Part shown: piece by piece, positions 26,777-31,278 of the stretch
Layout of the letters: each line of letters starts with the position of its first letter
How positions within the stretch are numbered: position 1 is the stretch's first letter
Source: Vallitalea sp.
Lineage (GTDB): Bacteria > Bacillota > Clostridia > Lachnospirales > Vallitaleaceae
Assembly (NCBI RefSeq): GCF_025211055.1
Contig: NZ_JAOARO010000077.1
Span: 124,001-188,000 of the forward strand
Reading direction: 5' to 3'
Length of the DNA stretch: 64,000 nt
Program-made: the position numbers and the translations under genes
Notes under the pieces: generated by a model
The model's input: only the letters and a program-made list of their open reading frames with translations
Databases searched by the model: none
What the model was told of the DNA's origin: nothing

Positions 26777-28906
26777 TTAATTTATTTGAAATTCACTTGA
26801 TAATCCATCAAAGTTTATGATATCACCTGTCCATCCATTTTTATATGCACCATGATGAAGAATTCTATATATTCCTGGCAAAGTATCGTTAGGTATTGTC
26901 CATTCTACTTTTGCTAGAGAACTACCCCATACTGGATCTTTTCTTATCCATCTGTATTTAGTTTCCCAATCCCAATCATTAGCGATTGTTACCCATTGAT
27001 TATCAACTCGTTTTTGTACTTCTAGATAAGTTGATTGTGTTTTTAGATCGTTCTTAGGATGACCAGTCCAGAATGAAACGGATACACTATCACCGATGTT
27101 ATACGAAGAGTGTACGTCTTCTTCAACTTCTCCAAAATCCTTACCTATAGGAACATTATCAAACACAACTCCTGTTTGGAAACACATTTGTTCGTCTTTT
27201 AGATCTCTAGGTGTAGGACCTGATTCAGTTGTCACATTATTTTTCATATCATTTGCTATTTTGTGGAATTCCTGTAAATAGCTTGGTAATGTCCATTTAC
27301 CAAAATGAGTTGATGCTCCTTCGTAATGCTGCATATCATATTCTTCCTGAGTAGCTACATAACCACTATACCCATTGGAAAGTCCTGCTAAAACAACTGT
27401 ATGCTCTATATTAGAGTCTTTGTCCATAGTTTGCTTAACAATTCTTTTTAGCCTTCTACCAGACATAGAGGTAAATTCAGCTGGGACTGCCACTAAGACT
27501 AATTGACCAATTTTCATAATCTGTATAGGTAATATTTCTGGAGTCCAAGGATAAGGTTCTCCTTTTCCAGTAGCAAAAAGTATTGGTTTGGGATAGTGTT
27601 GTTCCCATAGTTCTGGATATTTTAATCCATTGACAGTATTTATTTCTGGAATTATATTGAGAAAATGTTGAGCAGTTTTTACTAGATTACATCCCTCATC
27701 TATCGGATAATCATCTGAAGTCATTCCCTCATGGAACATATCTATATTACTAGGACCGTCTTCTGCTCCACAAGCAAATGAATATCCTATAGCTGCATCA
27801 TATGTCAACTTATGGTCTGATTCTGTTATTTCAGTTGGTAGTTCACTATTGCACTTATAACTAGTATATTCTAGCGCTACACTTATGTTCGAAAAATCTA
27901 TGTATTTATGTCTATAATCAATGTTACCACTTACAATAGTAGCTGCAGAATTACTTAGTTCAAGTCCCTTCAAGTATTGCTGTTCTCCTGCAAATTTTGT
28001 ACTTTCAAAATCATTATCCCCATATCCTTGTTCTCCCCCATAAATATTAGGAGATACATCACCACAGTCACTCTGGGCAAATGCAGCTACAAATGTTTTA
28101 TCTGCCCTATAATCCGTTCCTAGAGTTTTTTCATATAGATATGATGCATATCCTTTATTATCACTGGAAATATAATGATTTGTATTACCCATTGATGTTG
28201 GATGTATTGGAAACCAGTTGATTATTCCTAATAAGTCTCCATTGTTATTTTTGATATTAAGCATTACCATATCCCTATCAATATCATCTGCAAATATATT
28301 TCTCTCATCTTCATCATTATTATTATAAGCTACTATAGACCTATTAATGCTTGTTCCATTAAGAGTAGAAGAATTAATCTCAATATAACCTGATTCAAGG
28401 TTATTATGAGCTCTTACTATAGAATTATATATACCATCTACTATACAGTCATAATTTTCTTCAATATAACCGTATGCTGAAATATTATATAAAGCATAAT
28501 GAGAATGACCTGCTGGACCACAATGAGTATGAGTAGCACTTAACATAACGTTTTCATCTGTATATAAATCACCATATGTCTCCTGTAATTTCCTCATTAC
28601 ACCCTGTTTGACTCCCTGAAATAGTTGTCCCAAATCTGCACTAACAAACACAATTCTCTTGTTATTGGCATTATCAGCAACTATAAATGCCCTTGACCGA
28701 AGTCTAAGATGAATCCCTTCTGTTATTTGTTCATTACTTGCGTAACCCATCATTACTACTTCTGCTGCTGGTCCTGTTATATCATAAATACCTGTCCCAA
28801 CATTATAGTTTCCATTATCTTTTGCATATGTAACATTACGTGTAGGTATTGCAATCAATGATATAGCACATATTAGGCATAAAAACTTATTGAATCCTCT
28901 TAACAT
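26777..28906 (-). CDS. Secreted neutral/alkaline ceramidase-like hydrolase
   Basis: A 709-residue protein with a Sec signal peptide (hydrophobic FLCLICAISLIAIPT, likely cleavage after TYA near residue 28). It is related to neutral ceramidases, zinc amidohydrolases that split ceramide into sphingosine and fatty acid. Visible family motifs are the zinc-ligand region ATHTHCGPAG, the nucleophile-serine region INWFPIHPTSMGNTN followed by SSDNKGYAS, FAQSDCGDVSPN, and the C-terminal Ig-like region with TGHPKNDLKTQSTYLEVQ. The length is close to bacterial ceramidases. AAGGAGGAGATTTAT precedes the ATG. It is a single gene with its own terminator. The substrate could be ceramide from a host or food source, or another N-acyl lipid. 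Confidence 0.88.
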   Translation of the reverse strand: MLRGFNKFLCLICAISLIAIPTRNVTYAKDNGNYNVGTGIYDITGPAAEVVMMGYASNEQITEGIHLRLRSRAFIVADNANNKRIVFVSADLGQLFQGVKQGVMRKLQETYGDLYTDENVMLSATHTHCGPAGHSHYALYNISAYGYIEENYDCIVDGIYNSIVRAHNNLESGYIEINSSTLNGTSINRSIVAYNNNDEDERNIFADDIDRDMVMLNIKNNNGDLLGIINWFPIHPTSMGNTNHYISSDNKGYASYLYEKTLGTDYRADKTFVAAFAQSDCGDVSPNIYGGEQGYGDNDFESTKFAGEQQYLKGLELSNSAATIVSGNIDYRHKYIDFSNISVALEYTSYKCNSELPTEITESDHKLTYDAAIGYSFACGAEDGPSNIDMFHEGMTSDDYPIDEGCNLVKTAQHFLNIIPEINTVNGLKYPELWEQHYPKPILFATGKGEPYPWTPEILPIQIMKIGQLVLVAVPAEFTSMSGRRLKRIVKQTMDKDSNIEHTVVLAGLSNGYSGYVATQEEYDMQHYEGASTHFGKWTLPSYLQEFHKIANDMKNNVTTESGPTPRDLKDEQMCFQTGVVFDNVPIGKDFGEVEEDVHSSYNIGDSVSVSFWTGHPKNDLKTQSTYLEVQKRVDNQWVTIANDWDWETKYRWIRKDPVWGSSLAKVEWTIPNDTLPGIYRILHHGAYKNGWTGDIINFDGLSSEFQIN

Positions 28907-29056: not shown

Positions 29057-30796
29057 CTATTCTTCAGCGTAAATATTGATAAATTCAAATGTTGAAAAAT
29101 CAAATAACCCTTTTTCACAAACTTTGATTTCCGGTATTACTACAAGTGACATGAATGAAAGTGTCAATAATGGATTAATATCAACTTTTGGTGCAATTAT
29201 CTTTATCATCTCATTAAGTTTTCCTAAATCCTTTAATACTGTTTCAGAGTCCCTTGTAGTGATTAATCCACAGATTTCAAGATTTAACTTAGCAAGTACT
29301 TTATTATCATCTACAACAACAATTCCACCCTGCATCTCTTCTATAACTTTAATTGCCTTTAGTATATCGTTATCATTAGTTCCTACAACAATTAGATTAT
29401 GAGAGTCATGAGAAATAGTAGTTGCTATTGCTCCTGATTCTAGTTTTAGACCTTTCAGAATACCTTTACCTATATTACCAGTTTTTCTATGTCTTTCAAT
29501 GACTATAATTTTCTGCTGATCTTTTTCTATATCTGGTTGAAAGTGTCCTCGATCATTGGTTATGACCTTTTCAATAGATTTTTTTGTGACTACTCCATTA
29601 TTGATTACTTCTATAATATTAGCTTTATGATAGCCTTTCATATCAATAATCAGATCTTCTTTTTTTATTTCAGGTATATTTATAGAGGCTATTAATTTCT
29701 CTGGTTTCTCACATATAATTGTTGAAACTTCATCTATCAGCTTTTTATCTTTTACTACTAATTTTCCATTTTTATATACATCAATAATGTTAAGGTCCTG
29801 AATATTATCTAGTACTGAAAAATCCGCAATATACCCTGGAGCTATTGCTCCTTTTTCGTGGAGTTTATAACATTGGCAAGTATTATATGTTGCCATTGAT
29901 ATAGCTATAATTGGATCAAGACCTGACTTGATTGCTAGTTTTACATTATGATTGACTCCACCAATAGTCACCAGCTCGTCAAGATGTTTATCATCTGTTG
30001 CAAAACATAATAACCTATGGTTTCTCTCATTGACACTTGGTATAATATTAGGTAGATCTTTACATACTGAACCATATCTAACCAAAGTGTGGATTCCTCT
30101 TCTGTTTCTTTCTATTAAATCTTCAGCTGTGGTGGATTCATGGTCAGTTCTAATTCCTGCAGTTGCATAAGCATTCAACTTATTGATATCAAATCCCGCA
30201 CAGTGACCGTCGATAATACAATTTTTGTTTTTTGCGTCTTCCAATTTTTCTATCATGTCCTCATTACAAGATACTACCGCTGGAAAATCCATAACTTCTG
30301 CAAGCCCTAGCACACTTTCTTCTTCATATAGTGGTTTTAGGTCTTTAGCTGTTAGAATTGCACCCCCTCGCTCAAGACTAGTGGCTGGAACACATGAAGG
30401 AAGCATTATATTGACATCCAATGGTACATGTTTAGCCATATCCATCATATATCTTATTCCATCAACTCCACTCACATTAGCTATTTCATGAGGATCAGCA
30501 ATAATAGTCGTTACTCCAAAAGGTAATATTGCATTAGAGTATTGAATTGGTGTAACCATGGAGGATTCTATATGTAAGTGTCCATCTACAAAGCCTGGAA
30601 TGATGGTTTTACCAGTTCCATCTACTTCTAATTCACCTTTTCCTTTGTAAGCACCTATTCCGACAAAATATCCATCTTTAATTGCTACATCTGATGTATA
30701 TGTATCTAGATTAAATACATCTACGATCTTTACATTACTAATTACTAAATCCGCTTTTACTTCTTTTGTTGCTGCTTTTATTCTATCTACAAGCAT
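29057..30796 (-). CDS. ade: Adenine deaminase
   Basis: A 579-residue amidohydrolase converting adenine to hypoxanthine and ammonia. Motifs: metal-binding PGFVDGHLHIESSM, IADPHEIANVSGVDG, DGHCAG, RTDHESTTAEDLIERNRRG and FATDDKH, followed by the C-terminal ade domain (SHDSHNLIVVGTN, GGIVVVDD). The frame is open a further 165 bases upstream, but that stretch is the riboswitch leader and its terminator. AAGGAG 9 bases before the ATG at 30796 sets the start. Expression is predicted to be controlled by the guanine-type riboswitch about 280 bases upstream. Confidence 0.95.
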   Translation of the reverse strand: MLVDRIKAATKEVKADLVISNVKIVDVFNLDTYTSDVAIKDGYFVGIGAYKGKGELEVDGTGKTIIPGFVDGHLHIESSMVTPIQYSNAILPFGVTTIIADPHEIANVSGVDGIRYMMDMAKHVPLDVNIMLPSCVPATSLERGGAILTAKDLKPLYEEESVLGLAEVMDFPAVVSCNEDMIEKLEDAKNKNCIIDGHCAGFDINKLNAYATAGIRTDHESTTAEDLIERNRRGIHTLVRYGSVCKDLPNIIPSVNERNHRLLCFATDDKHLDELVTIGGVNHNVKLAIKSGLDPIIAISMATYNTCQCYKLHEKGAIAPGYIADFSVLDNIQDLNIIDVYKNGKLVVKDKKLIDEVSTIICEKPEKLIASINIPEIKKEDLIIDMKGYHKANIIEVINNGVVTKKSIEKVITNDRGHFQPDIEKDQQKIIVIERHRKTGNIGKGILKGLKLESGAIATTISHDSHNLIVVGTNDNDILKAIKVIEEMQGGIVVVDDNKVLAKLNLEICGLITTRDSETVLKDLGKLNEMIKIIAPKVDINPLLTLSFMSLVVIPEIKVCEKGLFDFSTFEFINIYAEE

Positions 30797-30912
30797 TACA
30801 CAAGACTCCTTATGGCGATTATATATAATTTTTATTTGGTTATTGGGAAGTTTCATATTAAGTAGTCTGGTATGTATTATAATAGAAAGTAAGGATGATT
30901 TCTTGAACATAT

Positions 30913-30939
30913 AAAAAAGACTTTCTATTAGAAAGTCTC
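30913..30939 (-). terminator. Riboswitch-controlled terminator in the ade leader
   Basis: Minus strand: stem AGACTTTC/GAAAGTCT with loop TAATA, followed by TTTTTT. It lies between the purine riboswitch and the ade start. Its 5' arm contains AGAGACTTTCT-type sequence fully complementary over 11 bases to the riboswitch core at 31111-31121, which gives an antiterminator pairing. Confidence 0.85.
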
Positions 30940-30982
30940 TTGATTCATAGTAGATATGCATTGCATAAATTTTAGTAAGACC

Positions 30983-31014
30983 AAAAAAACATCAGTTGGT
31001 TTATGAGTAACTGA
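30983..31014 (-). terminator. Weak second terminator-like hairpin in the ade leader
   Basis: Minus strand: CAGTT, an 11-base loop, AACTG, then a T run (TTTTTTT at 30989-30983). The stem is only about 5 bp, so it could be an auxiliary terminator or a pause site. Confidence 0.35.
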
Positions 31015-31078
31015 GTCCTTTAATCTATAAAGCACCTATTTATAAATAATAAATGGGTACTAACTAATTATACTATAA

Positions 31079-31147
31079 AATCGTAGTCCTGTATTTTACG
31101 GTTACAGGGTAGAGACTTTCTCACCATATTAGAGAATTTATACGAAA
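31079..31147 (-). ncRNA. Purine riboswitch, guanine-type
   Basis: The minus strand carries the conserved core: TATAA, AATATGG, the GTCTCTACC junction, the P3 hairpin CCTGT-AACCGTAAA-ATACAGG and GGACTACGA closing P1 with TCGTA. The specificity base in GACTA-C-GA is C, as in guanine/hypoxanthine aptamers; adenine aptamers have T. It lies upstream of adenine deaminase, so hypoxanthine, the enzyme's product and a known ligand of this class, would be the logical feedback signal. Confidence 0.95.
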
Positions 31148-31250
31148 CAATTAATTTTTATTATAAAATATACTCAAGCCAGTTAATATAACTAGTTTGA
31201 GTTTTCATTTGATTTGTTGAATCATTCATCTATGATATAGATTGTAGAAT

Positions 31251-31278
31251 ATTGTATCACAATATTATTTTTTGTCAA
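31251..31278 (-). promoter_or_regulatory. Promoter of the riboswitch-ade transcript
   Basis: Minus strand TTGACA (31278-31273) and TACAAT (31256-31251) with a 16-base spacer. The predicted start near 31244 leaves about 95 bases before the riboswitch P1. Confidence 0.7.

What the first reader, a model, noticed from the sequence alone, without database searches (positions are those of the whole stretch)
30913..31147. Guanine-type riboswitch controls adenine deaminase through an 11-base long-range antiterminator
The aptamer's specificity base is C (guanine/hypoxanthine), yet the gene consumes adenine; its product hypoxanthine would be the ligand. AGAAAGTCTCT in the aptamer P2/J2-3 is fully complementary to the terminator's 5' arm 170 bases downstream, unlike the common P1-based switch.
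Basis: partly seen in the sequence, partly recalled or inferred. Interest (0 to 1): 0.62.

Follow-up and report, generated by a model that had tools for sequence, protein, structure and literature searches.

The report
Guanine riboswitch using pocket-strand antiterminator
An RNA sensor for guanine or hypoxanthine ahead of an adenine-deaminase gene appears to switch the gene off by a rarely described route, in which the strand forming the sensor's binding pocket pairs with the downstream stop signal when no ligand is bound.

Summary
A guanine-type purine aptamer (RF00167, 80 bits, C at the specificity position) precedes ade. Eleven bases of P2 3'/J2-3 (31121-31111) are perfectly complementary to the 5' arm of an intrinsic terminator 170 nt downstream (30940-30930). 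Dinucleotide shuffles reach this in 2 of 20,000 arm-sized stretches. A relative with 79% Ade identity keeps the pairing (9 Watson-Crick pairs and 1 G-U) while the spacer has fallen to 41% identity.

I also find a conserved bridging helix, H1: a strand just after P1 pairs with one just before the terminator. It turns the long-range contact into a compact three-way junction. Folding predicts the antiterminator at about 0.97 once the terminator's 5' arm is made, and termination if the aptamer is held. This is an OFF switch not based on P1.

The ade link is not unique: guanine-type and adenine-type aptamers precede ade elsewhere in the class. J2/3-based antiterminators recur in two other clostridial lineages. 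Two whole-riboswitch covariation analyses used filters that would exclude such leaders. Genus members with this leader lack xpt.

Verdict: a real feature and a new variant of a known kind. Ligand response is untested.

The parts
31251..31278 (-). Promoter: TTGACA (31278-31273), 16 nt, TGA-TACAAT (31256-31251), extended -10
   Evidence: Consensus scan, 11 of 12; both hexamers kept in G001 and G002
31064..31165 (-). Purine riboswitch aptamer (Rfam match). P1 31145-31141/31085-31081 (weak, 5 bp); P2 31136-31132/31122-31118; J2/3 31116-31109; P3 31108-31103/31093-31088
   Evidence: cmscan RF00167, 80 bits
31086..31086 (-). Specificity base C (position 74 of guanine aptamers): guanine/hypoxanthine type
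   Evidence: Sequence GGA-C-UACG aligned to RF00167
31111..31121 (-). Antiterminator strand AGAAAGUCUCU (3' side of P2 plus J2/3, the ligand-pocket strand)
   Evidence: 11 of 11 complementary to 30940-30930; identical in G001 and G002
31071..31079 (-). H1 5' strand UUUAUAGUA, directly after P1 3'
   Evidence: Pairs with 30952-30944; conserved in G002
30953..31070 (-). Variable structured spacer closed by H1 (local hairpins in this genome)
   Evidence: 41% identity to G002, folded in both
30944..30952 (-). H1 3' strand UACUAUGAA, 3 nt before the terminator 5' arm
   Evidence: 11 of 12 positions of the segment kept in G002; the one change (A to G) keeps pairing as G-U
30930..30940 (-). Terminator 5' arm AGAGACUUUCU: pairs either with 31121-31111 (ON) or with the 3' arm (OFF)
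30913..30926 (-). Terminator 3' arm AGAAAGUCUU and U tract (30918-30913)
   Evidence: Terminator scan; kept in G001 and G002
30806..30811 (-). Ribosome binding site AAGGAG
   Evidence: Sequence; kept in G001 and G002
29057..30796 (-). ade, adenine deaminase, 579 aa
   Evidence: TIGR01178 above cut-off; PF13382, PF01979

Best explanation
This is a transcriptional OFF riboswitch of the guanine type that represses ade when guanine or hypoxanthine is plentiful. Without ligand, RNA polymerase first makes the aptamer and a spacer that folds up. The strand just after P1 then pairs with the strand just before the terminator (helix H1). As the terminator's 5' arm emerges beside the aptamer, it captures the 3' side of P2 together with J2/3 in an 11-bp antiterminator. 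P3 and H1 stay folded and form a three-way junction with it. This dismantles P2 and the ligand pocket, and ade is transcribed. With ligand bound, P2 and J2/3 are locked in the pocket, the 5' arm has no partner but its own 3' arm, the terminator forms, and transcription stops about 120 nt before the ade start codon. The physiological logic is product or end-product feedback: ade supplies hypoxanthine (and so guanine nucleotides) from adenine only when those are short. Shown: the parts, their conservation in two other genomes, the mutually exclusive pairings and their predicted probabilities. Inferred: ligand identity, ligand-dependent termination, kinetics and physiology.
For: RF00167 match and C74. 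Exact 11-nt complementarity, rare in shuffles and specific to this aptamer: 0 of 188 unrelated aptamers pair as well. In G002 (79% Ade identity) the aptamer is 94%, the H1 strands 83% and 92%, and the terminator 5' arm core 8 of 8 identical, while the spacer and post-terminator regions are at 41% and 33%. The one change within the paired part of the arm and the one in H1 are A to G and keep pairing as G-U. RNAfold of the transcript before the 3' arm is made gives exactly antiterminator + P3 + H1 as the minimum free energy structure in G000 and G001, and the same antiterminator core, P3 and H1 in G002. Ensemble probability of the antiterminator is 0.97 in both G000 and G002 when the 5' arm is complete. 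Holding the aptamer then costs about 10 kcal/mol and gives terminator probability 1.0 once the 3' arm is made. The arm's pairing with J3-1/P1-3' is 0.00-0.02. Genus members with this leader have no close Xpt homologue, while the two with Xpt have their only purine riboswitch on xpt, which fits a guanine-nucleotide supply role for ade.
Against: No experiment. Only two independent sequences of this leader exist (G000 and G001 are near-identical), so there is no true compensatory change in the antiterminator. At equilibrium the full-length G000 RNA favours the terminator (0.96) even without ligand, so the switch must be kinetic; in G002 the antiterminator stays at 0.79. RNAfold ignores the L2-L3 kissing contact and ligand binding. 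The terminator is A/U-rich and of modest stability (about -10 kcal/mol).
Confidence: 0.8

Rival explanations
1. Ordinary P1-based guanine OFF switch: the antiterminator is made by the 3' strand of P1 (or its extension), and the P2/J2-3 match is secondary. In a milder version H1 is the switch helix, competing with the base of P1.
For: P1-based switching is the published mechanism for xpt (PMC5480868), yxjA (PMC9756952) and 2'-dG (PMC12268651), and is the commonest strong aptamer partner in my survey (43 of 137). One alternative register of H1 reaches two bases into P1 3' in G000.
Against: The terminator 5' arm pairs with J3-1/P1-3' at probability 0.00 (G000) and 0.02 (G002). H1 forms with the aptamer held (0.95 and 0.97) as well as free (0.81 and 0.99), so it is compatible with P1.
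Confidence: 0.08
2. ON switch: ligand binding prevents termination, as in the adenine-type leaders of other ade genes.
For: ade leaders in G567, G262 and G518 have adenine-type (U74) aptamers whose terminators overlap P1-3'/P3-3', the pbuE-like ON layout.
Against: Here no terminator strand overlaps the aptamer. Holding the aptamer folded frees the 5' arm and favours termination. C74 is not the adenine type.
Confidence: 0.05
3. The terminator is a constitutive attenuator or bidirectional terminator and the match to P2/J2-3 is coincidence; regulation is at translation or absent.
For: No functional data; AT-rich genome; the hairpin could also work on the other strand.
Against: Chance is about 1e-4 per arm-sized stretch. 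The pairing is kept in G002 across an otherwise randomised spacer. J2/3-based arms are kept in almost all orthologous leaders of another genus.
Confidence: 0.05

Closest known systems
B. subtilis xpt-pbuX / yxjA guanine riboswitches (RF00167)
   Same: Same aptamer family, C74, transcriptional OFF logic, competition between antiterminator and terminator for the terminator's 5' arm
   Different: There the P1 region supplies the antiterminator strand (PMC5480868, PMC9756952). Here it is P2 3'/J2-3, the pocket strand itself, P1 is short, and a roughly 110-nt spacer closed by H1 intervenes
B. subtilis pbuE adenine riboswitch
   Same: Expression platform overlaps the interior of the aptamer, through P3 (PMC9756952), not only P1
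   Different: pbuE is an ON switch whose terminator invades the aptamer; here the antiterminator does, and the logic is OFF
Mesoplasma florum 2'-dG-I riboswitch
   Same: RF00167-like fold, transcriptional OFF switch with an antiterminator strand
   Different: Its antiterminator (P0) uses P1 nucleotides 9-23 (PMC12268651); ours does not
Purine riboswitches of f6 genus g13 (L228-L241, upstream of a predicted nucleoside-binding BMP-type lipoprotein in four inspected members) and of G418/G643 (L209/L246; NCS2-type permease downstream of L209)
   Same: Terminator 5' arm complementary to J2/3 (GUAGAAAC x GUUUCUAC; UAGGGACUUUC x GAAAGUCUCUA), found in this work
   Different: Other genes, shorter spacers, weaker predicted pairing (0.40-0.69), no H1 sought
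Other purine riboswitches upstream of ade in the class (L206, L225, L204 guanine-type; L170, L191, L218 adenine-type)
   Same: Same gene controlled
   Different: Platforms look translational (L206, L225), P1-based (L204) or pbuE-like ON (L170, L191, L218)

Membership tests
Purine riboswitch aptamer RF00167 | Covariance-model score above the gathering threshold, full length | tested here: met
   80 bits against 37, model positions 1-102
Guanine (class I) riboswitch | C at position 74, U at 51, no J2/3 or J3/1 insertions of the xanthine-II, guanine-II or 2'-dG type | tested here: met
   GACUA with C at 31086, J2/3 GUCUCUACC without insertion
Guanine (class I) riboswitch | Binds guanine or hypoxanthine selectively | not testable with these tools
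   Needs in-line probing or ITC
Transcriptional OFF riboswitch | Intrinsic terminator and mutually exclusive antiterminator | tested here: met
Transcriptional OFF riboswitch | Ligand raises termination | not testable with these tools
   Needs in vitro transcription; predicted by holding the aptamer
P1-switched purine riboswitch (xpt/yxjA type) | Antiterminator formed by the P1 3' strand | tested here: not met
   Pairing of the 5' arm with J3-1/P1-3' 0.00-0.02, with P2-3'/J2-3 0.98-0.99
Adenine deaminase (TIGR01178) | Score above the equivalog cut-off, both domains | tested here: met
   579.7 against 472.5; PF01979 + PF13382

The most novel reading that the evidence does not exclude
A recurrent, undescribed architecture of guanine riboswitches in which the ligand-pocket strand (P2 3'/J2-3), not P1, is the switching strand. 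It is found independently in at least three clostridial lineages. In the ade case it is assisted by a conserved bridging helix that converts a 170-nt separation into a local three-way junction, and it regulates ade by product feedback in species that lack xpt.
Probability: 0.6. Interest if true: 0.55.

Novelty: new variant of a known kind. Interest (0 to 1): 0.42.

Why it matters
Purine riboswitches are the textbook model of switching by P1 strand exchange. Here the pocket strand itself would be the switching strand, so ligand contacts and the regulatory decision reside in the same nucleotides and need not be relayed through P1. Two published whole-riboswitch analyses could not have seen it. 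Ritz et al. 2013 kept only sequences whose P1 3' strand pairs with a terminator within 100 nt (PMC3723493). Hertz et al. 2026 limited post-aptamer sequence to 45-65 nt (PMC13273304). The apparent dominance of P1-switching may therefore be partly a selection effect. The leader is short, natural and directly testable.

Tried and rejected
P1-based antiterminator: no pairing of the terminator arm with P1 3'. Second terminator in the spacer (stem UCAGUU/AACUGA plus seven U, about 31013-30983): missing from G002, so not treated as the switch. ON logic: no terminator overlap with the aptamer. Ade orthologue in G005 (77%): no RF00167 match near it and no aptamer seen in its upstream sequence, so no third independent leader. 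My first alignment with G002 was in the wrong orientation and was redone. H1 was mis-registered and corrected. The genome-contig scan returned only seven Ade homologues of at most 55% identity, none from this genus; their leaders were not examined. Literature searches for a J2/3- or P2-based antiterminator in guanine riboswitches found none in the held library; subscription papers are not held, including Mulhbacher and Lafontaine 2007.

Full report
Observation. The region 31165-31064 on the minus strand is a full-length purine aptamer (RF00167, 80 bits). It is the only one found in the genome. It has C at the specificity position (31086) and an otherwise standard guanine pocket. The terminator at 30941-30915 is the only terminator-like site in the 1-kb region scanned. 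The gene, from ATG 30796, is adenine deaminase (TIGR01178 above cut-off; PF01979 and PF13382). AGAAAGUCUCU at 31121-31111 is the exact complement of AGAGACUUUCU at 30940-30930. In dinucleotide shuffles of the downstream region, 2 of 20,000 arm-sized stretches and 4 of 1,500 whole regions contain an 11-nt Watson-Crick match to the aptamer. The arm pairs better with its own aptamer than with any of 188 non-orthologous purine aptamers.

Conservation. The genus holds six genomes. G001 (94% Ade identity) has a nearly identical leader; G002 (79%) a diverged one. Between G000 and G002 the aptamer is 94% identical, the spacer 41% and the sequence after the terminator 33%. The terminator 5' arm core GACUUUCU is identical, and two further short blocks stand out: UAUAGUAUAAUU after P1 (83%) and UCUACUAUGAAU before the terminator (92%). 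These two blocks are complementary (UUUAUAGUA x UACUAUGAA; helix H1). The only difference within the eight H1 pairs counted turns U-A into U-G. In the arm, G002 has G for A at one paired position, which again keeps pairing with U as G-U in both the antiterminator and the terminator. These are consistent with, but do not prove, selection on both states.

Folding. The transcript up to the end of the 5' arm has as its minimum free energy structure, in G000 and G001, the 11-bp antiterminator enclosing P3 and H1; in G002 the same antiterminator core, P3 and H1 appear. Ensemble calculations along the transcript give antiterminator probabilities of 0.97 (G000) and 0.97 (G002) once the 5' arm is complete. 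P1 is then lost and P3 kept. If P1, P2 and P3 are enforced and J2/3 kept unpaired, the antiterminator is impossible and the terminator reaches 1.0 after its 3' arm is made. The free-energy cost of holding the aptamer at the decision point is about 10 kcal/mol, which ligand and tertiary contacts would have to cover (the comparison with binding energy is inference). After the 3' arm is made, G000 favours the terminator even without ligand while G002 does not, so G000 needs kinetic control. H1 forms with or without the aptamer and is complete just before the arm emerges. I infer that it is a scaffold that brings the pocket strand next to the arm, and that the spacer gives time for ligand sampling.

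Comparison set. I collected 192 purine riboswitches from the order and class. Of these, 137 have a usable terminator. By strongest contiguous helix, the partner is J3-1/P1-3' in 43, downstream of P1 in 20, P2-3'/J2-3 in 15, other aptamer elements in 15, and weak in 44. By ensemble pairing of the 5' arm, P2-3'/J2-3 is the main partner in 10. The three ade leaders here are extreme (0.98-0.99); the others are 0.31-0.60. Within genus g13 of family f6, 13 of 14 orthologous leaders keep an arm able to pair across J2/3 (GUAGAAAC or single A-to-G variants), while loops and flanks vary; the fourteenth (L228) breaks one pair. Four of these leaders (L086, L088-L090) fall in one downstream-protein cluster whose displayed member, L088, reads as a BMP-type lipoprotein by its sequence, not by a profile search. 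G418 and G643 have such arms too; L209 of G418 precedes an NCS2-type permease, judged by its translated start only. The architecture therefore recurs in unrelated contexts. The xpt leaders of this same genus instead use P3-3'/J3-1 (UACAGGC).

Gene association. tblastn of Ade against all leaders finds six further ade genes directly downstream of purine aptamers. Three aptamers are adenine type (U74) with pbuE-like overlapping terminators (L170, L191, L218). Three are guanine type (C74): L206 and L225 with an apparent RBS-sequestering hairpin, L204 with what looks like a P1-based terminator design (platforms judged by eye). So both logics appear to exist for ade: substrate-induced ON and product-repressed OFF. 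In this genus, genomes carrying the ade riboswitch (G000, G001, G002) have no close Xpt homologue, and those with Xpt (G003, G005) have their single purine riboswitch on xpt.

Literature. P1 is the documented switching strand in xpt (PMC5480868), yxjA (PMC9756952) and the 2'-dG riboswitch (PMC12268651); pbuE overlaps the aptamer through P3 but is an ON switch (PMC9756952). The published covariation model of the purine antiterminator was built by discarding sequences whose P1 3' strand does not pair with a terminator within 100 nt (PMC3723493), and a 2026 extension limited the post-aptamer length to 45-65 nt (PMC13273304). The present leader (terminator 124 nt after the Rfam match, no P1 pairing) would be excluded from both. 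C. difficile has four guanine riboswitches, none on ade (PMC11477304). I found no description of a J2/3-based antiterminator, but subscription papers could not be searched.

Conclusion. The best account is an OFF guanine/hypoxanthine riboswitch with a pocket-strand antiterminator and a bridging helix: a new variant of a known kind, with moderate interest. Ligand identity and function need experiments.

Noticed in passing
window 30899-30875 (-): After the terminator, ACUUUCUAUU resembles the terminator 5' arm and in the fold of the read-through RNA pairs with the terminator 3' arm (AAUAGAAAGU), which could help keep the antiterminated state. Present in G000 and G001, not in G002.
   Followed up: partly
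window 31013-30983 (-): A short stem (UCAGUU/AACUGA) followed by seven U lies in the spacer: a possible pause or weak early terminator, absent from G002.
   Followed up: partly
L206, L225: Guanine-type aptamers closely upstream of ade with a predicted RBS-sequestering hairpin: apparent translational guanine switches on ade.
   Followed up: partly
L228-L241: In genus g13 of family f6, purine riboswitches almost all have terminators whose 5' arm (GUAGAAAC) is complementary to the near-invariant J2/3 strand; the downstream gene looks like a BMP-type lipoprotein.
   Followed up: partly
L023 and L033 (G005, G003): xpt leaders of the same genus appear to use UACAGGC (P3 3'/J3-1) against GCCUGUA in the terminator 5' arm and loop.
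   Followed up: no
window 26777-28906 (-): Downstream of ade lies a full neutral ceramidase homologue (PF04734 and PF17048), unusual next to a purine salvage gene.
   Followed up: no
G000:C55:139718-141418 and G000:C2:53369-55075: Two further Ade paralogues (44% and 34% identity) in the same genome have no purine riboswitch.
   Followed up: no
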